From Bacteroidales bacterium (GTDB lineage Bacteria; Bacteroidota; Bacteroidia; Bacteroidales; UBA932), in assembly GCA_017550655.1 (NCBI GenBank), contig JAFZOK010000017.1, forward strand, positions 225,030 to 289,029: a stretch of 64,000 nucleotides of DNA. The letters run 5' to 3'. A program made the position numbers and the translations under genes. Positions within the stretch are counted from its first letter, which is position 1. Each line of letters begins with the position of its first letter. Positions 42,531-52,017 of the stretch are shown one piece after another. The notes below the pieces were generated by a model. That model was not told where the DNA came from. It searched no databases and worked only from the letters and a program-made list of their open reading frames with translations.

Positions 42531-45248
42531 ATGTCAGAGATAGACAGGGAAGATATAAATCAGGAAGAATTGCAGCAAGAGGAGCCGAAAGGCAAATTCT
42601 CTAAGCTTCTGAAGGAGGGAGATAACAAGTACAGGCTTCCGGGAATGTTCAAGAACTGGTTCCTGGACTACGCATCATATGTTATTCTGGACCGTGCCGT
42701 ACCGCACATTGAAGATGGACTCAAGCCGGTTCAGAGAAGGATTCTGCACGCAATGAGGAAGATCCACGACGGTTCCCTTATCAAGGTGGCCACCATCGTG
42801 GGTGAAACCATGAAATACCATCCCCACAGCGATGCCTCCATCAAGGACGCTCTGGTTCAGATCGGGCAGAAAAACCTGCTGATAGACTGCCAGGGAAACT
42901 GGGGTAACACCATAACCGGAGACGAGGCAGCCGCAGGAAGATACATCGAGGGAAGGCTCTCCAACTTTGCTTTGGAGGTGGTTTTCAACCCGAAGACCAC
43001 AGAGTGGATGAACTCCTACGACGGAAGGAACAAGGAGCCGGTCACCCTGCCGGTAAAGTTCCCTCTGGTTCTTTACCAGGGAGCGGACGGTATCGCGGTA
43101 GGACTCAACTGCAAGATCCTTCCGCACAACTTCAACGAGATCATTGACGCTTCCATAGCTTTCCTCAGGAGCGAAGAGTATCACCTCTATCCTGATTTCC
43201 CTTCCGGAGGAATCATGGACGTAAGCCGCTATGCGGACGGAAAGAGGGGCGGAAAGATAACCGTCAGGGCCAGAATCCTCAAGATAGACAAGAAGACCCT
43301 GAAAATCACTGAGCTTCCTTTCGGAAAGAATTCCGGAAACATTCTCCAGAGCATCATAGCCGCCAACGACAAGGGCAAGATCAAGGTCCGCAAGGTTGAG
43401 GACCTGAGCGGAAAGAAGGCGGAAATCGTGGTTACGCTGGCCGCAGGAGAATCTCCGGACAAGACCATTGACGCTCTCTACGCGTTTACGGACTGCCAGG
43501 TTTCCATCAACCCGAACACCTGTGTCATAAAGGATAACAAGCCGCACTTCCTGACCGTATCCGAAGTGCTGGAATTCAGCACCCTCCGTACCAGAGACCT
43601 CCTGAAGAAGGAACTGGAGATAAGGCTCGGCGAACTGGAAGAAAGCTGGCACTCCCTGTCCCTTGAGAAGATCTTCTTCGAGGAAGGCAAGTACAAGCTC
43701 CTGGAAGACAAGAAGACCAGAAGCTGGGACAGCCAGGTGAACGAAATCCACAAGGCCTTGAAGGTTTACGAGCCGCTTCTGCACCAGAAAGTCACACGCG
43801 ATGATGTGCTCAAGCTCGTGGAGAAGCCAGTAAGGAAGATTTCCCGTTTCGACATCAAGGAGTGCAACGCCAAGATAGACAACGTGGAGAAGGAGATTGC
43901 CAAAGTCCATCGCGACCTTGAAAACCTTACAGAGGTTACTATTGAATACTTCCAGAGCCTGAAAGACAAATACGGAGAGGCTTATCCTCGCTGCACAGAG
44001 ATTTCTAATCTGGAGACCATCCAGGTTGCCAGAGTGGCCGTTGCAAACGCCAAGCTCTACGCCAACTTCGAGGAGGGCTTCATCGGAATGGACCTCAAGA
44101 AGGACGACAACGCCCAGTTTATCTGCAACTGCTCGGACATCGACGATGTCATCGTCTTTATGTCCAACGGCAAATATCTGGTTACCAAGGTATCGGACAA
44201 GGCTTTCGTGGGCAAGGACATTATCCACGCCGCCGTGTTCCAGAAGAACGACCTGAGAACAATCTACAACGTCATATACCGCGACGGCAAGTCCGGCAAC
44301 AACTTTGTCAAGAGATTTGCCGTAACCTCAGTCACCCGAGACAAGGAGTATGACGTTACAATGGGAACTCCGGGTTCCAAGATCCTCTGGTTTACCGCCA
44401 ACCATAACGGAGAGGCCGAGACCGTCAAGGTTAACCTCCGTCCAAGGCTCAAGCTCAAGAAACTGAACTTCGACTACGACTTTGCAACTCTTGCAATCAA
44501 GGGAAAGACCTCCAGGGGTAACCTACTGAGCAAGAACCCGATAAGCAAGATAACCCTTAAGGCCAAAGGCGGCTCCACCATCGGAGACAAGCCTCTGTGG
44601 TTCGATACCGATGTCAACCGCCTCAACGAGGACAAGAGAGGAACCTACCTGGGCAAGTTCAAGGACGAAGACCGTATCCTGGCAGTTTACAAGAACGGAA
44701 CTTACGCCACCACCAGCCAGGATCTCAACAATCACTATGAGGGAGAACTCATCCGGGTAGAGAAGTTCGATCCTGCAAAGGTCTATGCCGCTGTCTATTA
44801 CGATGCAGAATCCGAGAAATTCTACCTCAAGAGGTTCAAGTTCGAGCTTAACAACAACCCGTCAAACCTCTTCATCAGCGAGGAGGAAGGCTCATACCTT
44901 GTTGCCATCACTTCAGCCACCGGAAGCCAGGTTGTCATCCAGTTCGGCGGCAAGCATGAAGGCCGTCAGAACGAGGCTGTGGCAGTTGACAGCTTCATCG
45001 CGGAGAAAGGATGGAAAGCCAAGGGCAAGCGCCTCACCCAGTACGAGATCGAAAAGGTTGTTCTCATAGAACCTCCTGTCCTTGAGGATGAAGACGAGGA
45101 CTATGATTTTGAACCCCAGCCTGATGACGAGAATCCTTCAACCGGTTCTTCAAATGAAGAATCTGGGGAAGACATTCCTGAAGACACAGACTTCCCTGAA
45201 GAAGACTCAGACTCCTGGGACGGAGAAGACGAACCAACCCTTTTCTAA
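42531..45248 (+). CDS. parC: DNA topoisomerase IV subunit A
   Basis: A 905-residue type IIA topoisomerase A subunit. I chose the ATG at 42531 because the frame upstream begins only at a TTG within the promoter. The breakage-reunion domain starts at about residue 35; the catalytic tyrosine is Tyr138 in AGRYIEGRLSN. The C-terminal domain has a degenerate set of beta-pinwheel blades and an acidic tail of about 50 residues. It matches the ParC-like proteins of Bacteroidota rather than GyrA (no GyrA box QRRGGKG is seen). The parE gene is not adjacent here; aroK follows with no gap. Confidence 0.93.
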   Translation: MSEIDREDINQEELQQEEPKGKFSKLLKEGDNKYRLPGMFKNWFLDYASYVILDRAVPHIEDGLKPVQRRILHAMRKIHDGSLIKVATIVGETMKYHPHSDASIKDALVQIGQKNLLIDCQGNWGNTITGDEAAAGRYIEGRLSNFALEVVFNPKTTEWMNSYDGRNKEPVTLPVKFPLVLYQGADGIAVGLNCKILPHNFNEIIDASIAFLRSEEYHLYPDFPSGGIMDVSRYADGKRGGKITVRARILKIDKKTLKITELPFGKNSGNILQSIIAANDKGKIKVRKVEDLSGKKAEIVVTLAAGESPDKTIDALYAFTDCQVSINPNTCVIKDNKPHFLTVSEVLEFSTLRTRDLLKKELEIRLGELEESWHSLSLEKIFFEEGKYKLLEDKKTRSWDSQVNEIHKALKVYEPLLHQKVTRDDVLKLVEKPVRKISRFDIKECNAKIDNVEKEIAKVHRDLENLTEVTIEYFQSLKDKYGEAYPRCTEISNLETIQVARVAVANAKLYANFEEGFIGMDLKKDDNAQFICNCSDIDDVIVFMSNGKYLVTKVSDKAFVGKDIIHAAVFQKNDLRTIYNVIYRDGKSGNNFVKRFAVTSVTRDKEYDVTMGTPGSKILWFTANHNGEAETVKVNLRPRLKLKKLNFDYDFATLAIKGKTSRGNLLSKNPISKITLKAKGGSTIGDKPLWFDTDVNRLNEDKRGTYLGKFKDEDRILAVYKNGTYATTSQDLNNHYEGELIRVEKFDPAKVYAAVYYDAESEKFYLKRFKFELNNNPSNLFISEEEGSYLVAITSATGSQVVIQFGGKHEGRQNEAVAVDSFIAEKGWKAKGKRLTQYEIEKVVLIEPPVLEDEDEDYDFEPQPDDENPSTGSSNEESGEDIPEDTDFPEEDSDSWDGEDEPTLF

Positions 45249-45249
45249 A

Positions 45250-45795
45250 ATGATCATTGCACTCTGCGGTTTCATGACTTCCGGCAAGACACTGGCCGGG
45301 GAAGCCCTGTCTGAAAAGACTGGCAGGAAACTCATTGACCTTGACCAGTACATAGAGCAGAAAGAAGGCCTGGATATGGAATCCATTTTCAGGGAAAAAG
45401 GAGAAGCATATTTCAGAAAAAAGGAAGAGGAATCGCTAAGAAAAATCCTTGACACTGAAGATGATATCATCCTCTCCCTCGGCGGAGGAACTCCAATGAA
45501 TCCCAACTGCAGAGCCCTACTGAAAGAACGTACCAAGTGCTTCTTCCTGACCTGCTCTCCAAAGGTTCTTGCGGAAAGGATGCTCCTCCTCCAGGACGGC
45601 AGACCACTTGTAAAGGCCCTACTCGCCGAGCACCCGAACTCCACCAAAAAGCAAAAACTCCAAATCCTCGAAGCCTGGGCCAAAGAAAAGCTCCAGGAAC
45701 GGATCCCCCTCTACCAAGCCTGCTCCATCCAAACCATCGACACCTCAATCTGGGACATTGAATCAATCACCTCTCAGATCATGGGCGGCTTTTAG
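45250..45795 (+). CDS. aroK: Shikimate kinase
   Basis: A 181-residue shikimate kinase, which phosphorylates shikimate in aromatic amino acid synthesis. Walker A is GFMTSGKT (7-14), Asp32 sits in DLDQYIE, and GGG at 78-80 binds shikimate; LLQDGRPLV is the lid region. The ATG at 45250 follows the parC stop by one base; the frame is open earlier but lies inside parC. The last 17 bases overlap the 3' end of the convergent DnaE-like gene, marking the border of the accessory island. Confidence 0.95.
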   Translation: MIIALCGFMTSGKTLAGEALSEKTGRKLIDLDQYIEQKEGLDMESIFREKGEAYFRKKEEESLRKILDTEDDIILSLGGGTPMNPNCRALLKERTKCFFLTCSPKVLAERMLLLQDGRPLVKALLAEHPNSTKKQKLQILEAWAKEKLQERIPLYQACSIQTIDTSIWDIESITSQIMGGF

Positions 45796-46708
45796 GCCAC
45801 AACGCCTCCACCGAGAGCATCGTCCTGGCAATCTCTTCTCCCTTGAGTGCCAGAATGTAATCGTGTTCAGGAACTGTTGCCCCCATTTTCTGTAACAGGT
45901 GTGCCTGTTCCTTATATACCAGGATTCCGTAGGTTTCCTGGAGTATCCGGTCCACCCGTGGATTTCCCGTGGACGGGATGCTGCCAGGATTCTGTTTCCG
46001 GCATAGGACTTCTCTGTAGAGATGTATCCTCCGTGGAGAATTGAGCGCTCTCAGCAGACACAGGTCAGACATTGATTCCGGTTCAAAGTCTGACAGCCAC
46101 CCCCGCATTTTGTCCGTCTCGAACCAGACCGATCCATCTGTCAAACCCAGGTTAAACTTGTAGAGGACTTTCTCGGTCAGTGGCCGCCATCCTCCCTTCA
46201 GTGTCCTCTTGAACTTGTCCAGATCTTCATTTTCAATGACGTGGAGCTGGAAAGTCATCTCCGGTATCACCTCTGTAAAGGTTATCTGGAAGGTGCCCGG
46301 CTCTGTCTCAGCGATGATTTCATCACGGTCTTCCAGAACCTTCTCAGCAACAGCAACACCTCCAGTACCAGTCTCAAGAACCAGATCGTTATTAGGACCG
46401 AAGTATTCGAGGAAGAAGGAGAATGGCAAATCCCATAAGACTGGATTAACCCGTGTCACACCAGTCAGATAGAGCAGAAGGGAACAGTTGAAGTATCCAA
46501 ATCCGGGACTAGTCACGATGCCTGCAGTCCGGACTTTAGCAGCCACATCGGAAAGTAGTCTTGTGCAGGCTAACCGGATAGGATCAGCATCTATCCAATC
46601 CAATTCTTCCTTAATGCGAGCCATCAAGTCTTTTACAGTACATTGATCGAAACCGTCAATCTTGTGTTCAATGGCTCTGTTAATCTTTTGCAGTAATTGT
46701 TTATCCAT
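45779..46708 (-). CDS. DnaE-like orphan protein lacking polymerase aspartates
   Basis: A 309-residue protein (ATG at 46708; a TTG three codons earlier is unlikely). Its sequence follows the palm-finger region of bacterial DNA polymerase III alpha: GIVTSPGFGYFNCSLLLYLTG at 63-83 aligns with the GRGSAAGSLVAYLLG motif (kept in shorter parts), PFSFFLEYF with LFERFLNPE, and TYGILVYKEQ at 259-268 with the TYG(I/V)xxYQEQ motif. At the place of the catalytic PDxDxDF loop it reads NNDLVLETG (106-114), so the metal-binding aspartates are gone. No PHP, thumb or OB part is present. It is probably a non-catalytic derivative that binds DNA or a replication partner. It is divergent from the WYL regulator. 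Confidence 0.75.
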   Translation of the reverse strand: MDKQLLQKINRAIEHKIDGFDQCTVKDLMARIKEELDWIDADPIRLACTRLLSDVAAKVRTAGIVTSPGFGYFNCSLLLYLTGVTRVNPVLWDLPFSFFLEYFGPNNDLVLETGTGGVAVAEKVLEDRDEIIAETEPGTFQITFTEVIPEMTFQLHVIENEDLDKFKRTLKGGWRPLTEKVLYKFNLGLTDGSVWFETDKMRGWLSDFEPESMSDLCLLRALNSPRRIHLYREVLCRKQNPGSIPSTGNPRVDRILQETYGILVYKEQAHLLQKMGATVPEHDYILALKGEEIARTMLSVEALWPKSRP

Positions 46709-46732
46709 ACTCAACAATTCAATTATGATTTT

Positions 46733-46809
46733 TTCGGCAAAGATATATGTAGCATCGGCAAAAAAACGGCAGAATTAAATTATTTCACTTCTGCCAGAAT
46801 ATTGCCGAA
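46733..46809. promoter_or_regulatory. Nested inverted repeats between the DnaE-like and WYL genes
   Basis: An outer pair TTCGGCAA/TTGCCGAA (46733-46740, 46802-46809) encloses GGCAGAA/TTCTGCC (46768-46774, 46789-46795) in the AT-rich divergent intergenic region. Together they make a symmetric region of 77 bases that could be the operator of the WYL regulator and control both directions. A TATCTTTG -7 box lies at 46818-46825 on the plus strand, just before the WYL start. Confidence 0.55.
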
Positions 46810-46834
46810 GATATGAGTATCTTTGTGGTCAGTT

Positions 46835-47758
46835 ATGGCAAAAAACTATTTCAAATCTTACATCTGGCTGCTGGAAACTCTCCAGAGCAGAGGTTCCCTT
46901 ACACTTGCTGAAATCAAGCGCCTTTGGAAGAGGAGCTCGGTAAATGATGAAGGAAAGGAACTTGCAACACGTACTTTTTCCAACCATATTGCTTCCATCG
47001 CAGATATCTTCGGCATATACATCGTCTGTGACCGAAGCAGCAATACTTATCACATTGACAACAGGGATGAACTAAACGGAAGCGGCATTCGCGAATGGAT
47101 GCTGGAAGCCCTCAGCCTTAACAGCCTCATCAATGAAAGTGCCGGATTGCGATCCAGACTCCTTTTCGAAAGCGAGCCTTCCAGTCATCGCTTCCTTACT
47201 GATATCATCAAAGCCATCCGCGATGAGAAAATGGTAGAGGTAAACTACCAGAGTTTCAAGATGGATGAACCCAGAATATTCCTTCTGGAGCCATATTGTC
47301 TGAAAGAATACAAACGACGCTGGTATCTTTTTGCCCGTGAACACAAGGCAAAATACAAAGAGCCGCACTCCTTCTCCCTTGACAGGATGAGTTCTGTTAC
47401 AGTCAGCGATGCAACCTTCACGGTTCCAAAGTCTTTCGACTCAGAGGAATTCTTCAGCACCCGTTATGGCGTTCTTCAATATGAAGGCGAGAAGCCGGTT
47501 CGCATCAAGATCAAAACAACAGCCCATCAGGCCAACTATTTCCGAACCCTTCCGCTACACTCCAGCCAAAAGGAAATCGAAAAGACAGACACATTTTCCA
47601 TCTTCTCCTACTACCTCTCACCAAACTATGATTTCATTCACGACGTCCTATATTTCGGCGATGCCCTGGAAGTCCTGGAACCAGCAAGCTTGAGGACCTC
47701 ACTCCACGAAACCATCAGCAAACTAAACACCTGCTATGATAATGAACAATCGAGATAA
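46835..47758 (+). CDS. WYL domain transcriptional regulator
   Basis: A 307-residue regulator from the ATG at 46835 (the frame begins at a TTG inside the promoter). A winged helix-turn-helix occupies about 1-80, the WYL domain about 120-200 with the literal Trp163-Tyr164-Leu165 in RRWYLFAREH, and a WCX-type C-terminal domain ends YFGDALEVLEPASLR. WYL proteins sense ligands, often nucleic acid or nucleotide derived, and many (CapW, BrxR) control phage-defence operons. The next gene starts inside it: its ATG at 47736 lies 23 bases before this stop, so regulator and nuclease-like protein are coupled. A DnaE-like gene is divergent. Confidence 0.92.
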   Translation: MAKNYFKSYIWLLETLQSRGSLTLAEIKRLWKRSSVNDEGKELATRTFSNHIASIADIFGIYIVCDRSSNTYHIDNRDELNGSGIREWMLEALSLNSLINESAGLRSRLLFESEPSSHRFLTDIIKAIRDEKMVEVNYQSFKMDEPRIFLLEPYCLKEYKRRWYLFAREHKAKYKEPHSFSLDRMSSVTVSDATFTVPKSFDSEEFFSTRYGVLQYEGEKPVRIKIKTTAHQANYFRTLPLHSSQKEIEKTDTFSIFSYYLSPNYDFIHDVLYFGDALEVLEPASLRTSLHETISKLNTCYDNEQSR

Positions 47759-48716
47759 ACTAGAAGAATCTGCTAAAATTAAAAGCCTTTATAAGTTTTT
47801 CAAAGACAATGACTTTCTTTCTTCTGATACCATTAATCTTAAGTATAATTATTCAAAGGGGAAAAAGTCTCAATGGTCTCTTGCCTTTGCAGGAAAATGC
47901 CTAAAAGATGTCTTTGGCATTGAAAATCCAATATTCTGCTCCAAATTTGTTGAAGCCATCAGTGGGGACGGGCAAGAGGCTGATAAGATTACAACTCTTC
48001 ATTCCTCTTCTCTTGCGTCCCTATTGGTATTCTATTCAGTCAGTAAGGATAATCCTATCTATGTGGATGTTAATGGCCATTTAGAGAAGTTTATTGAGAG
48101 TCGATTTGAAGTAAAAAATGAGGTTAGTATAGGAAGCAACAACTTTTCAAACATAGATGTTGTCCTTTATGGCGATAACTGCATTTTATATCTGGAATCA
48201 AAATTTTCTGAATACCTTGGAAGCGGTCCTGTTGAAGTAAAAGAAGTCAAATACTACGACATTATTTATAATCGATTAGCAAACACTCTCAGTGATATAG
48301 GGCTTCATTTAAAGGAAAGGAAAAATGGAAAGGAAAGGGTTCTTGAAAGAGTCGATGAGAAACCTTTTTATAGCGAAGGAATCAAACAGATGATATCCCA
48401 CTATCTCGGTCTTACAACTGAAATTCAGTCTGGCAGGCTGAATTCAGATGGGAAGACAATAGTTTTAGGCGAAATCCTTTTTTATTTTGACAACAAAATT
48501 CCAAATGGCCGAAAGAAATTCAACTCATACAGAGAGGCTTATTCTATTCTAAAAAAGGGGCTAACATTATGTGCTGAAGAAGACAAAACCGGACTCATTA
48601 TCAACCACCTCAGTACATATCAGAGTATCTTGGCGGTGACAAAGAATCATGGATTCCTTATGAAACTCCCTGAGAGTATTCGTGAATTCTACCATTTCAA
48701 AGAATTGGAGGAGTGA
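47736..48716 (+). CDS. PD-(D/E)XK-like nuclease-fold protein A
   Basis: A 326-residue protein with no recognised family. Residues 139-160 read NIDVVLYGDNCILYLESKF, a strand-turn-strand with Asp141 and Glu154-x-Lys156, the PD-(D/E)XK nuclease core (D-x12-E-x-K). There are no membrane segments. ATGs at 47736 and 47742 are both possible; the first overlaps the WYL gene by 23 bases. The gene is clearly AT-richer than aroK or recJ and uses many A/T-ending codons, a sign of transfer. Its partner in sequence layout, the protein at 48983-49933, has the same active-site spacing. I infer a restriction-like or defence nuclease under WYL control; enzymatic activity is untested. Confidence 0.75.
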   Translation: MIMNNRDKLEESAKIKSLYKFFKDNDFLSSDTINLKYNYSKGKKSQWSLAFAGKCLKDVFGIENPIFCSKFVEAISGDGQEADKITTLHSSSLASLLVFYSVSKDNPIYVDVNGHLEKFIESRFEVKNEVSIGSNNFSNIDVVLYGDNCILYLESKFSEYLGSGPVEVKEVKYYDIIYNRLANTLSDIGLHLKERKNGKERVLERVDEKPFYSEGIKQMISHYLGLTTEIQSGRLNSDGKTIVLGEILFYFDNKIPNGRKKFNSYREAYSILKKGLTLCAEEDKTGLIINHLSTYQSILAVTKNHGFLMKLPESIREFYHFKELEE

Positions 48717-48821
48717 CGCAAATCCACATACTGAACAGAGTATTTGTCAAAAGATAAAATTGCAAAACAAGGGTGGAAACCGCTGGAAATCTAATATTAT
48801 TAGTATATTGCAAAAAATAAC
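48717..48821. other. Intergenic stretch upstream of the WYL relic
   Basis: AT-rich, no open frame of note, no hairpin terminator and no clear promoter. It may be further eroded regulator sequence, but I see no residual similarity to the WYL gene here. Confidence 0.4.
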
Positions 48822-48953
48822 TCATACATAGGTTACAGCGTCTTTGCCGACAACCTAGCCCCAGATTATTAAGTCAAGCAAGACATCCTCTCGTTTGGAG
48901 ATACAGTGGAAGTCCTGGAACCACTATCTTTAAGGAGGAAGACAGCTTTATAA
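48822..48953 (+). pseudogene. Remnant of a second WYL regulator (C-terminus only)
   Basis: In one frame this stretch encodes a decayed copy of the last 40 residues of a WYL regulator: SVFADNLAPDY, a stop (TAA at 48870-48872), then DILSFGDTVEVLEPLSLR and a final stop. The intact gene at 46835-47758 ends FSIFSYYLSPNYDF then DVLYFGDALEVLEPASLR; the block GGAAGTCCTGGAACCA is identical in DNA. No N-terminal part is left. Its place directly before the second nuclease-like gene mirrors the intact WYL-nuclease pair, so the island probably once held two such modules. Confidence 0.78.
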
Positions 48954-48982
48954 CTAAAACCTTTTTTTAAACATATCACGCT

Positions 48983-49933
48983 ATGAAAACTCAAGATTTC
49001 CGCAACAAATGGGAGAAAGGATTAGAGAACTACCTTTCAAAAATAGATAAATCCCGATGTAATGGGTTTACAAGAAAGTCAAAATGTAAAGAAGCTGCTA
49101 GACATAGGCACATTATTGATTTAAAGGCTGGAGAAAATGAACTTGATGTTATTAAAGAGTATAATGTTCTGGATAATAAAGACGACTTTGAATATTTGAT
49201 TGGGAGGAGGAAAGTTCATCAATATGCAAGGCACTTAAATTCATCTCAGGTGATGTGCTATAATTTTTTTCGCCCAATGATTTTAGTTGATTCAAATAAA
49301 CCTAAATATGGTTCTCCTAAGGATCTTTTGATAAGATTTGTAAATGAAAAGATCCATGTATCTATTTCAAAGGATGCTCTTTGTTATTTTGAATATGAAG
49401 ATATAGATACTCGGAAGCAATTCAAATCATATACTAACAATAAAGGAAGAGGAGAAAAAAGCCAGTTTGATTTCTATATAAAAGATGGTGTAACTGAACT
49501 TTTCTTTGAAATAAAATATACAGAATCTTCTTTTGGCAAATGGCCAAGTGATAATAACAAGATATCAGGACAGAGTATTATCAATCATTGTTCATATATT
49601 CAGAACGGTTATAAATCTTGGCTTCGTGATAGTCAATACTTCACTGAAGATTGCAAAAATAAGATACTATCATTTAAAGAATCTGAGTTTTCATATCCCC
49701 AAAACCCTTTTAACGCTCAGTATCAATTATTTAGAAATGCATTAAGAGCCAGAGATTCAAGTTATTCCATTTTTATCTTCCCTGCTGCAAATCCAGATAT
49801 CAAACGGGAATTTGAAGTTTTCAAAAAAAACCTTTGGGATAACCAACAACATATAATTGGTTTAACATGGGAGGATTTAAAGCAATATATGTTACCCGAA
49901 TTCATCGAAAAATATATAAGTATTCTTGAATAA
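48983..49933 (+). CDS. PD-(D/E)XK-like nuclease-fold protein B (PGN_0703-like)
   Basis: A 316-residue soluble protein. Residues 161-180 (QFDFYIKDGVTELFFEIKYT) hold Asp163 and Glu176-Ile-Lys178, the PD-(D/E)XK core with the same D-x12-E-x-K spacing as the protein at 47736-48716. The N-terminal RHRHIIDLKAGENELDVIKE and the ARHLNSSQVMCYNFFRPMI segments recall the PGN_0703 group of putative restriction endonucleases described in Bacteroidota. The gene is very AT-rich compared with recJ and lysS. It follows a relic of a WYL regulator and precedes a candidate small RNA. No methyltransferase is nearby, which argues against a standard restriction-modification system. Confidence 0.75.
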   Translation: MKTQDFRNKWEKGLENYLSKIDKSRCNGFTRKSKCKEAARHRHIIDLKAGENELDVIKEYNVLDNKDDFEYLIGRRKVHQYARHLNSSQVMCYNFFRPMILVDSNKPKYGSPKDLLIRFVNEKIHVSISKDALCYFEYEDIDTRKQFKSYTNNKGRGEKSQFDFYIKDGVTELFFEIKYTESSFGKWPSDNNKISGQSIINHCSYIQNGYKSWLRDSQYFTEDCKNKILSFKESEFSYPQNPFNAQYQLFRNALRARDSSYSIFIFPAANPDIKREFEVFKKNLWDNQQHIIGLTWEDLKQYMLPEFIEKYISILE

Positions 49934-49965
49934 ACTCTATATCTCTTAATACCAAAAGGAATTCT

Positions 49966-50055
49966 TATATTTGCAACGGATTGGCAAGTCCAATCAAATG
50001 GACTGGGGTGTCCCTGGTCGGAAAAGGGTTGAAGTGTAATCTCAACTCTTTTTTT
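49966..50055 (+). ncRNA. Candidate small structured RNA with own promoter and terminator
   Basis: A TATATTTG -7 box (49966-49973) is followed by a hairpin GATTGG/CCAATC (49979-49984, 49990-49995), a GC-rich hairpin around 50000-50020 (GAC-GGG/CCC-GTC type) and an intrinsic terminator: stem GGGTTGA/TCAACTC (50026-50032, 50042-50048, one G-T pair) with T7 (50049-50055). No open reading frame fits. The transcript would be about 75 bases. No -33 box is evident. It could be a regulatory RNA of the island or an unrelated sRNA. Confidence 0.6.
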
Positions 50056-50086
50056 GTTTTTTTAAAACGAGGGGATAGAATAGAGT

Positions 50087-50132
50087 GTAAAAAAGCAGGT
50101 ATCGATTCACTTTAAGTCATCAATACCTGCTT
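50087..50132 (-). terminator. Intrinsic terminator of recJ
   Basis: A 14-bp stem (50093-50106 with 50119-50132, one G-U pair in the minus-strand RNA) with a 12-base loop, followed on the minus strand by a T run, 60 bases after the recJ stop. It also closes the accessory island against read-through from the core genome. Confidence 0.8.
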
Positions 50133-50191
50133 CTACTCTCTAGTTATAATATCCATATGACACTGCAAATGTATAGAATATTTCTATTGTT

Positions 50192-51955
50192 TTAGAGGGT
50201 AGTGTCTTTGCCCTCGCGGATGTCTTTGATTCTGAGCTGGATGTTGGCGATGCTGGAACGGTAGAAGTTCTCGGCGATGCTGTAGCAGATATCCACAGGT
50301 TCTCCTGCTGCCAGATGGTCGAAATACTCGCTCATGTTGAAAGCGATGGCGCTCAGAGGACGGAATGAATCAGCTTCCTGGATGAGCTCAAGCTTGAGGT
50401 GGCCGCCTCTTCCGTCAATCGGATTACCAACGATACGTCCGTTGCCGTTGTCATAGACGCTGGTAGTCATGAAGACAGGAGACTGGTTTCCAGGTCCGAA
50501 TGGCTGGAACATGTTCAGAAGGCGGAAGAACCTTGGGGTGATCTGCCTGAATTCCAGGAAGGCGTCTATGTTGATGATAGGAGTAAGGATCTCCTTTGTA
50601 ATGTTCTTTGTTACAATGTCTTCGAATCTCTGGCGGAAAGTCTCGAGGTTCTCTTCCTTGAGGGTAAGGCCGGCGGCGTAGGTATGCCCGCCGAAGTTCT
50701 CCAGAAGGTCTGCGCAGCTCTCGATGGCATCGTAGAGGTCGAAACCTGCGATACTTCTTGCGGATCCTGAAACAAATCCGTTGGAAGATTTTGTAAGCAC
50801 GATGGTCGGCCTGTAGAATGCCTCCACCAGACGGCTGGCAACGATTCCCACAACTCCCTTGTGCCACTCCGGATTGTAAACCACAGTGGAGTTCAATGTG
50901 CTGAACTGAGGATGGTTGCGCACAATCTCAATGGCCTGCTGGGTGATGGTGCGGTCTATGCTCTTGCGCTCATTGTTATGGTCGTTGATCTGCTTTGCGA
51001 TATGTGTTGCCTCAGCGATGTCGTCAGAAGTCAGAAGGTCCACGGCCATACGTCCGCTCTCCATTCTTCCGGCGGCATTGATTCTCGGACCGATCTTGAA
51101 TACCACATCGTCTATGGTGATCTTGTGCTTTTCCAGGCCGGAGAGCTTAATCATGGAAAGAAGGCCTTTCCTCGGCGACTCGTTAAGCCTTTTCAGGCCA
51201 TAGTATGCCAACACCCTGTTTTCTCCCGTAACGCTCACAAGGTCAGCGGCGATGCTCACTGCAACAAGGTCCAGCAGAGGCTCAATTTCCTCAAACGGGA
51301 TACCGTATCGCAGAGCATAACCCTGAACCAGCTTGAAGCCCACTCCGCAACCTGAAAGATCGTCGTAAGGATAGTGGCAGTCTTCCCTCTTAGGGTCCAG
51401 CGTAGCAACTGCAGGCGGCAGTTCCTCGCCAGGAAGATGGTGGTCGCAGATGATGAAATCAATGCCCTTGCTCTTGGCGTACCTTACAGCCTCGGCCTCC
51501 TTGATTCCGCAGTCCAGGGCAATCACCAGGGAGCACTTTCTCTCAGCGGCCCAGTCCACTCCGTAGAAGGATATGCCGTAACCCTCGTCATATCTGTCAG
51601 GAATGTAATAGTCTATGTTGCCGGTAAGGCGCCTGAGGAAGGAATATACCAGGGAAACGGCGGAGGTGCCGTCCACGTCATAGTCACCGTAAACAAGGAT
51701 CTTCTCCTTGCTCATGACGGCCTTGCGGACCCTTTCCACGGCAGTTTCCATATCCGTCATAAGGAACGGATCGTGGAGCGAGGCAAGAGACGGATGGAAG
51801 AACTGGCGGACTTCGTCAGAGTTCTTTATACCCCTCTGGACCAAAAGGTTAGCCAGAACCTCGTCGATACCGAGATCCTGAACTAGCTGCCGGGTGTAAA
51901 TCGGGTTGCCCGGTTCCCTTACGATCCATTGTTTCTCCCTGCTCTTTACTACCAT
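50192..51955 (-). CDS. recJ: Single-stranded-DNA-specific exonuclease RecJ
   Basis: A 587-residue RecJ (start ATG at 51955; the upstream extension begins at TTG). RecJ degrades single-stranded DNA 5' to 3' in recombination and mismatch repair. Motif I is DYDVDGTSAV at about 90, the DHH motif is in ICDHHLPGEE, and the DHHA1 part includes GGHTYAAGLTL. The C-terminal OB domain is complete. It is divergent from lysS, with 89 bases between the starts, and marks the return to core genome after the island. Confidence 0.95.
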   Translation of the reverse strand: MVVKSREKQWIVREPGNPIYTRQLVQDLGIDEVLANLLVQRGIKNSDEVRQFFHPSLASLHDPFLMTDMETAVERVRKAVMSKEKILVYGDYDVDGTSAVSLVYSFLRRLTGNIDYYIPDRYDEGYGISFYGVDWAAERKCSLVIALDCGIKEAEAVRYAKSKGIDFIICDHHLPGEELPPAVATLDPKREDCHYPYDDLSGCGVGFKLVQGYALRYGIPFEEIEPLLDLVAVSIAADLVSVTGENRVLAYYGLKRLNESPRKGLLSMIKLSGLEKHKITIDDVVFKIGPRINAAGRMESGRMAVDLLTSDDIAEATHIAKQINDHNNERKSIDRTITQQAIEIVRNHPQFSTLNSTVVYNPEWHKGVVGIVASRLVEAFYRPTIVLTKSSNGFVSGSARSIAGFDLYDAIESCADLLENFGGHTYAAGLTLKEENLETFRQRFEDIVTKNITKEILTPIINIDAFLEFRQITPRFFRLLNMFQPFGPGNQSPVFMTTSVYDNGNGRIVGNPIDGRGGHLKLELIQEADSFRPLSAIAFNMSEYFDHLAAGEPVDICYSIAENFYRSSIANIQLRIKDIREGKDTTL

Positions 51956-52017
51956 TGCCGATTCCCCAGATTGGGTAGGTTGCAAATTTAGTTAATATTT
52001 ATCTCATAAAAAAATGT

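What the first reader, a model, noticed from the sequence alone, without database searches (positions are those of the whole stretch)
45779..50055. Accessory island with duplicated WYL-nuclease modules, a dead DnaE-like gene and a small RNA
Between core genes aroK and recJ lies an AT-rich block: a DnaE-derived orphan, a divergent WYL regulator translationally coupled to a PD-(D/E)XK-like protein, a decayed WYL C-terminus, a second PD-(D/E)XK-like protein with the same D-x12-E-x-K spacing, and a small RNA candidate. WYL regulators are known to control phage-defence operons (CapW, BrxR). There is no methyltransferase, helicase or known defence core gene, so this does not look like a described restriction or BREX/CBASS system. 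The island is the best candidate for an undescribed defence system; function is inference from context.
Basis: partly seen in the sequence, partly recalled or inferred. Interest (0 to 1): 0.78.

Follow-up and report, generated by a model that had tools for sequence, protein, structure and literature searches.

The report
Swappable nuclease cassette with dead polymerase
In uncultured gut and rumen bacteria, a conserved but apparently inactivated shrunken copy of the replication polymerase DnaE recurs near a DNA-binding regulator and an exchangeable gene that looks like a DNA-cutting enzyme, which may be an undescribed anti-phage cassette whose polymerase-like part has an unknown job.

Summary
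An accessory island lies between aroK and recJ: a DnaE-derived orphan, a WYL regulator overlapping a PD-(D/E)XK-like gene, a WYL remnant and a second PD-(D/E)XK gene (Pfam REase-ARP). The orphan is not debris. It is a ~300-residue family, found here in uncultured Bacteroidales/Bacteroidia MAGs and one IMG/VR contig, with dN/dS ~0.2, reduced to a palm piece plus fingers, with at least two of three catalytic aspartate positions replaced.

In 21 of 22 mini-DnaE loci a regulator lies within 3 kb (an Arm-DNA-bind+DUF1653 protein in 18, WYL in 3), with an exchangeable cargo slot. Eight of eight cargo families carry a PD-(D/E)XK-type motif, against 1 of 111 control families (motif written after seeing the cargo). 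Three larger DnaE-like proteins with lost aspartates also lie near WYL-nuclease cassettes.

The island is absent from this site in relatives, some of which hold McrBC, Fic/BRO or HepT/MNT genes there. The small RNA occurs elsewhere without the module.

Best reading: a defence cassette with swappable nucleases, in which a dead polymerase mimic acts as sensor or adaptor. Defence is inferred; the mimic's role is speculative.

The parts
45779..46708 (-). mini-DnaE: about 309-residue pseudo-DNA polymerase III alpha (palm piece plus fingers; PHP and the C-terminal parts absent; two of three catalytic aspartate positions replaced in the window copy)
   Evidence: Pfam PF07733 and PF17657; profile of the family maps to Taq Pol III alpha 380-455 (weak on its own) and 650-753 only; aspartate positions; dN/dS median 0.21 in the family
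46709..46834 (.). divergent control region: inverted-repeat arms 46728-46740 / 46802-46814 (TTCGGCAA...TTGCCGAA) and a Bacteroidota-type -7 element TATCTTTG at 46818-46825 in front of WYL (promoter type recalled, from no call)
   Evidence: 13-nt arms, 85% complementary, 61 nt apart; TGCCGAAG upstream of WYL in 7 of 10 aligned loci
46835..47758 (+). WYL-WCX regulator
   Evidence: Pfam WYL and WCX over cut-off; close homologues head nuclease cassettes elsewhere
47736..48716 (+). PD-(D/E)XK-type nuclease 1 (family F3), overlapping the WYL stop; D141, E154, K156 invariant
   Evidence: alignment of 8; homologue in L049 matches REase-ARP over cut-off, 33.1 against 27 bits, L033 homologue under it, 20 bits; no Pfam match for the window protein
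48834..48935 (+). remnant of a second WYL C-terminus, with a stop
   Evidence: tblastn 53% over 34 residues, E 8e-10
48983..49933 (+). PD-(D/E)XK nuclease 2, REase-ARP family (F12); D163, E176, K178 invariant
   Evidence: PF22558 97 bits, PDDEXK_13 27.7 bits, both over cut-off; alignment of 6

Best explanation
The island is a mobile, regulated nuclease cassette, most likely anti-phage, at a chromosomal site that in some relatives holds other conflict genes. Shown by sequence: a regulator (WYL here, an Arm-DNA-binding+DUF1653 protein, F2, in most mini-DnaE loci) lies next to a slot holding a swappable gene, nearly always of a family with a PD-(D/E)XK-type motif; a conserved pseudo-DnaE is encoded alongside, divergent from F2 in all 18 F2 loci and from WYL in the window. 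Inferred: the regulator keeps the cassette low until infection or DNA damage; the released PD-(D/E)XK enzyme then cuts DNA, of the phage or of phage and host together. With no methyltransferase, self-protection would have to come from expression control, recognition of modified DNA, or a trigger. Most speculative: the mini-DnaE, a predicted catalytically dead Pol III alpha derivative, is the non-enzymatic sensor or adaptor. It would bind primer-template, a replisome partner, or a phage protein that targets the polymerase, and license the regulator or nuclease. In the window two WYL-nuclease cassettes stand in tandem; the second keeps only a WYL remnant.
For: Co-occurrence: full-length mini-DnaE in 6 of 149 family genomes; F2 in 6 of 149, 5 shared and adjacent (hypergeometric p 6e-8, not corrected for relatedness); in the sixth (G079) the contig ends 223 bp beyond F2. 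Nuclease F3 in 4 of 149, 3 of them in mini-DnaE genomes (p 1.5e-4). Of 22 mini-DnaE loci (window, 20, one), 18 have F2 (L035, 16 residues only, and L041 cut by contig ends), 3 have WYL, 1 has neither. Purifying selection: dN/dS median 0.21 over 122 usable of 190 pairs of 20 sequences. Swapping: in ten loci mini-DnaE is 75-95% and F2 70-92% identical while the cargo gene is 0-24%; in L049 against L051 DNA homology stops 67 bases before the WYL end and resumes just after the nuclease. Motif: 8 of 8 cargo families against 1 of 111 control families, Fisher 1e-11. Pseudo-DnaEs p787, p445 and p835 have lost two or three of three catalytic aspartates and lie near WYL-F3 cassettes, and group with mini-DnaE at support 100. 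Defence context: island absent, with aroK within 470 bp of recJ, in 14 of 30 genus loci; of 8 such sites read in full, G552 holds a Fic/BRO protein (PADLOC PDC-S04), G547 HepT/MNT and G003 an McrBC-family protein with AAA ATPases; one cassette lies between integrase and tail genes on an IMG/VR contig; one (L036) beside methyltransferase, specificity and kinase/NERD genes (PADLOC best matches MTase_II, Specificity_II, mad6); L037 has YoeB and a YefM-like antitoxin in the slot. BrxR-family WYL regulators co-localize with defence systems (PMC9122601, abstract and passages).
Against: No phage or nuclease assay exists. Neither the nuclease fold nor the mini-DnaE fold could be modelled, and F3 and F12 have no PDB relative by sequence. 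The mini-DnaE is not obligatory for WYL-nuclease cassettes: of 10 loci with close WYL homologues, 3 have mini-DnaE, 2 have larger pseudo-DnaEs, 1 a fragment and 4 none in the fetched stretch; in L105, at the same site as L047, L049 and L051, it is missing. More distant WYL relatives are common (54 of 149 genomes at E 1e-30), so WYL alone says little. One mini-DnaE (L042) has no regulator or nuclease beside it. The motif regex was written after I had seen the cargo motifs; one of 20 cargo sequences (L043) lacks it; and the 8 families are not all independent (F3 and F12 are linked through REase-ARP, L036 and L040 share a short stretch). The mini-DnaE keeps an acidic residue at the first catalytic position in 4 of 5 copies aligned. 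The dead-polymerase clade rests on long branches and its place among host DnaEs is unsupported (46). Nearly all data are MAGs. No match in annotated phages for either nuclease.
Confidence: 0.6

Rival explanations
1. A selfish or addiction cassette: the regulator and nuclease act like a toxin with its control for keeping a mobile element, and the mini-DnaE serves the element (for example contact with the host replisome), with defence only a side effect.
For: YoeB with a YefM-like antitoxin fills the slot in L037; F2 has an integrase-type arm DNA-binding domain; integrases lie near the cassette in L124 and L036 (the other loci were not scanned for integrases); tandem cassettes in the window.
Against: The gene-for-gene swapping of nucleases is more like diversifying defence; the aroK-recJ site holds defence-type genes in some relatives.
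Confidence: 0.2
2. A DNA-damage or mutagenesis module: a dead polymerase works as a scaffold for a real polymerase, as the catalytically dead Y-family protein ImuB does in the ImuA-ImuB-DnaE2 mutasome, and WYL responds to DNA damage.
For: Precedent for a dead polymerase as an essential component (ImuB; PMC6511836, start of the abstract in the listing). WYL regulators that respond to ssDNA are recalled, from no call.
Against: The recurrent partners are interchangeable nuclease-type genes; the patchy distribution (6 of 149 family genomes; 1 of 393 in the order draw) is unlike a repair module.
Confidence: 0.08
3. The mini-DnaE is a passenger or pseudogene that shares hotspots with unrelated nuclease cassettes.
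For: No pseudo-DnaE found in 4 of 10 WYL loci, L105 at a shared site among them; alone in L042.
Against: dN/dS about 0.2; 18 of 22 loci beside the same F2 gene; shared stretches in the region upstream of F2 in 14 aligned loci; several truncation forms of pseudo-DnaE near the same kind of cassette.
Confidence: 0.08

Closest known systems
REase-ARP (Pfam PF22558) / PD-(D/E)XK nucleases
   Same: The 48983 protein matches at 97 bits, over cut-off; the 47736 protein is linked through a homologue
   Different: The partner in the family name (ARP) is not identified here, and the held library has no paper with the string 'REase-ARP'; the WYL/F2 and mini-DnaE setting is not part of the family's one-line description
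BrxR-type WYL regulators of defence islands
   Same: WYL protein encoded directly upstream of and overlapping its cargo, with inverted-repeat arms in its control region
   Different: Repeat arms lie 61 nt apart, not 11-bp repeats with a 5-bp spacer as reported for BrxR (PMC9122601, passages); the cargo here is single nuclease-type genes
DNA polymerase III alpha (DnaE)
   Same: Sequence homology in the palm N-part and fingers
   Different: No PHP domain, no match to the rest of the protein, two or three catalytic aspartate positions replaced; about a quarter of the length
ImuB, a catalytically dead polymerase component
   Same: Idea only: a dead polymerase kept as a non-enzymatic component (PMC6511836, start of abstract in a listing)
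   Different: Y family, mutasome partners; no homology claimed

Membership tests
REase-ARP (PF22558) | Score over the curated cut-off (27 bits) | tested here: met
   48983 protein 97 bits. For the F3 family mixed: homologue L049 33.1 bits, L033 20 bits, under cut-off, the window F3 protein no match
PD-(D/E)XK superfamily | Conserved D ... (E)xK active site | tested here: met
   Invariant D/E/K in 8 F3 and 6 F12 sequences
PD-(D/E)XK superfamily | Restriction-endonuclease fold | not testable with these tools
   Structure prediction switched off; no PDB relative by sequence
WYL regulator | WYL and WCX domains | tested here: met
   54.7 and 36 bits, both over cut-off
BrxR-type autoregulation | Closely spaced inverted repeat in front of the gene | tested here: inconclusive
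   13-nt arms but 61 nt apart; TGCCGAAG in 7 of 10 upstream regions
DNA polymerase III alpha | Catalytic aspartates and full domain set | tested here: not met
   Two or three of the three aspartate positions replaced in the five copies aligned; only two segments match
Restriction-modification system | Cognate methyltransferase beside the nuclease | tested here: not met
   None among the four island proteins; in the relative L036 a methyltransferase stands downstream of the mini-DnaE
Described defence systems (PADLOC-DB 2.0.0) | Model match of system core genes | tested here: not met
   Of the four island proteins only the WYL protein matched, by WYL models and by Cas3c and AbiEii models over the same region; none for relatives' F2, F3, F12, F4, F17, F40 at E 0.01

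The most novel reading that the evidence does not exclude
A defence class in which duplicated, catalytically dead Pol III alpha proteins are kept as replisome mimics: the mimic senses replication forks, or phage factors that attack the polymerase, and licenses an interchangeable PD-(D/E)XK nuclease held in a regulated slot.
Probability: 0.28. Interest if true: 0.9.

Novelty: new variant of a known kind. Interest (0 to 1): 0.75.

Why it matters
It adds a cassette type in which the effector nuclease is exchanged like a cartridge while a regulator and a polymerase mimic stay fixed. If the mimic is a sensor, it would show bacteria keeping dead replisome parts as detectors or bait, which is directly testable. 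It also marks the aroK-recJ junction of this Bacteroidales genus as a place to look for further conflict genes.

Tried and rejected
Rfam over 45000-52000 gave one match, far under its gathering score. The small RNA as part of the module: rejected. It is in 3 of 149 family genomes including this one, and the stretches around the other two show no hit to my module reference proteins; its 13-base core is in no module locus other than those of this window and a longer pattern is in no viral contig. Annotated phages: 19 records match mini-DnaE, none covering 80% of the query (the 10 listed cover 33-57% at 31-35% identity), none match the nucleases; F3 had no relative in viral contigs. A distant REase-ARP relative, L125, came and was not studied. 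An order-wide draw at a strict cut-off (1 of 393, the own genome) and a phylum-wide draw for F2 (0 of 296) found no wider spread; the latter had no positive control among its genomes, so it shows little. Mini-DnaE as debris: rejected by dN/dS. PDB searches for F3, F12 and F2 gave nothing useful. Terminase search on the IMG/VR contig was empty. Repeats of 40 nt or more within window 45000-50300: none. Paper searches listed no paper on a DnaE-like protein with WYL-nuclease cassettes; the library lacks most subscription papers.
Full report
WHAT IS THERE. The island lies between a shikimate kinase gene (aroK, 45250-45795) and recJ (minus strand, its 3' end at 50192). In order: a minus-strand DnaE-derived gene (45779-46708), its 3' end overlapping that of aroK; a control region; a WYL-WCX regulator (46835-47758); a gene overlapping the WYL stop (47736-48716, family F3); a WYL remnant (48834-48935); a REase-ARP gene (48983-49933, family F12); then an RNA candidate (49976-50062). 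I passed the WYL protein to tools without its first residue (46838 on). GC falls steadily from the mini-DnaE (0.489) to the REase-ARP gene (0.308), and codon adaptation is lowest for the two nucleases, as expected if the nucleases are the newest arrivals.

THE SITE. recJ was found in 38 of 39 genus genomes; 30 of these loci, the own one included, were fetched with up to 1.5 kb flanks and searched. In 14 of 30, aroK lies within 470 bp of the recJ end, in some overlapping it; among them is G553, whose recJ is 98.8% identical (a 95-aa ORF fills its gap). The other 15 relatives have longer gaps, no aroK in reach, a different neighbour or a contig end. Only the own locus (L074) shows WYL, F3, F12 or mini-DnaE hits. 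I read 8 sites in full: G553 and G119 are empty or nearly so; G546 has an IS200-type transposase; G537 a 456-aa gene that I did not scan; G552 a Fic/BRO protein (PADLOC PDC-S04), and G549 a look-alike that I did not scan; G547 a HepT/nucleotidyltransferase pair; G003 two AAA ATPases and an McrBC-family protein. The site is variable and in at least 3 of 8 holds conflict-type genes.

THE MINI-DnaE FAMILY. Full-length relatives occur in 6 of 149 genomes of the family, in 1 of 393 of an order draw (the own genome, cut-off 1e-25), in 20 loci of GTDB-derived contigs whose titles are all uncultured Bacteroidales, Bacteroidia or Prevotellaceae (five have the contig lengths hits), and on one IMG/VR contig. 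In an alignment of 21 they are 43-60% identical to the window protein, with many invariant positions. dN/dS is 0.09-0.44, median 0.21, over the 122 of 190 pairs with usable dS (20 sequences). Against solved Pol III alpha sequences the profile matches Taq residues 380-455 (weak alone, 0.04) and 650-753 only. Aligned with host DnaE, in five mini-DnaEs the second aspartate of PDIDIDF is V, S or P and the DFLGL aspartate H, R or Q; the first is D in three (the window among them), E in one, I in one. That these three are the catalytic aspartates is recalled. Two proteins in G051 (787 aa, two of three lost; 445 aa, all three lost) and one in G096 (835 aa as called, from an alternative start; two lost) are further DnaE-like proteins, all near a WYL gene with F3. 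In a tree of 306 columns they group with the mini-DnaEs at support 100 among 14 host DnaEs, with no supported place there (46); branches are long, so this is a lead. In 15 genomes that I chose because they carry such WYL or DnaE-like genes, all 7 extra DnaE-like copies lie at WYL or F2 loci; that choice is biased, the 149-genome search (weakest rows not listed) is not.

THE CASSETTE. In 22 mini-DnaE loci (window, L033-L052, L124), the regulator is F2, a 195-aa protein with Arm-DNA-bind_5 and DUF1653, in 18 (L035, 16 residues only, and L041 cut by contig ends), always divergent; WYL in 3, divergent in the window and upstream on the same strand, about 1.5-1.7 kb away, in L049 and L051; and neither in L042. 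F2 is in 6 of 149 family genomes, 5 shared with mini-DnaE and adjacent (p 6e-8, not corrected for relatedness); the sixth, G079, is cut by the contig end. The region upstream of F2 aligns in part across 14 loci (in L040 and L045 it ends at an intervening SLOG gene). Of the 22 loci, 18 carry a cargo gene of a family with a PD-(D/E)XK-type motif (in L033 and L034 behind the mini-DnaE, in L047 and L048 two such genes in tandem; L044 by membership in family F17 only), one has YoeB with a YefM-like antitoxin (L037; the antitoxin is just under its Pfam cut-off), one has none (L042), and two cannot be judged (L035, L041).

CARGO EXCHANGE. In ten F2 loci, mini-DnaE is 75-95%, F2 70-92%, and the cargo 0-24% identical; where an RNase J-like MBL protein follows (six of these loci), it is 48-95%. 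In L050 against L043 and L052, DNA homology stops at the F2 end and resumes at the MBL start; in L049 against L051 it stops 67 bases before the WYL end and resumes behind the nuclease. L047, L049 and L051 share one chromosomal site but carry F2-F17-F3, WYL-F3 and WYL-REase-ARP; L105 has WYL-REase-ARP there and no mini-DnaE. The strict motif is in 19 of 20 cargo sequences and 8 of 8 families (by majority), against 1 of 111 control families; that one, L109, is itself in a WYL-MBL locus. The regex was written after one search had shown me the motifs, and F3/F12 and perhaps L036/L040 are related, so the p value is indicative.

WINDOW HISTORY. The WYL remnant in front of the REase-ARP gene, and WYL-REase-ARP pairs elsewhere (L051, L105, L106), indicate two WYL-nuclease cassettes in tandem, the second having lost most of its WYL.

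DEFENCE CONTEXT. One copy (F12, F2, mini-DnaE) lies between an integrase and tail genes on a 56.6-kb IMG/VR contig; the terminase search there was empty. In L036 a methyltransferase, a specificity protein and a kinase/NERD protein stand downstream (PADLOC best matches MTase_II, Specificity_II and mad6). WYL relatives in L107-L109 precede metallophosphoesterases (the L107 protein matches PADLOC PDC-S10). About half (48%) of BrxR homologues co-localize with known defence systems (PMC9122601, abstract and passages); distant WYL relatives are common here too (54 of 149 genomes).

JUDGEMENT. Sure: island, conserved mini-DnaE family, regulator and swappable cargo. Likely: the cargo are nucleases and the cassette is for conflict, most probably anti-phage. 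Open: what the dead polymerase does. I put sensor or adaptor first because it stays fixed while nucleases change, but its absence from some WYL cassettes shows that it is not always needed.

Noticed in passing
window 49976-50062 (+): Structured RNA candidate (-29.7 kcal/mol, z -3.57) with promoter-like and terminator-like ends; relatives in 2 further family genomes (G114 92% over 96 nt, G121 81% over 57 nt) at sites without the module; no Rfam family over threshold.
   Followed up: partly
L025 7926-8759 and 6554-7891: In G051 a DnaB_C-family protein (277 aa) stands beside the 445-aa pseudo-DnaE; an RNase_T-type exonuclease (F10) recurs near WYL genes (L110, L111, L115), so more replisome-like parts may be involved.
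   Followed up: partly
L107, L108, L109: WYL followed by a metallophosphoesterase (PADLOC PDC-S10 match for L107), a variable gene, an RNase J-like MBL protein and a ~200-320-aa protein: a possible second cassette type.
   Followed up: partly
L050 4679-9943, L052 4212-9394: Dispersed direct repeats of about 50-120 nt around the cassette, on both sides in L052, possible recombination substrates.
   Followed up: partly
L123 1473-6007 (G003, aroK-recJ site): AAA_14/DUF4143 protein, AAA_5 protein and McrBC-family protein at the same site in a relative.
   Followed up: yes
L040, L041, L045, L106: A SLOG/DprA-like (YspA) protein sits between F2 and mini-DnaE (L040, L041, L045) or beside WYL (L106); only the L040 protein was scanned.
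   Followed up: no
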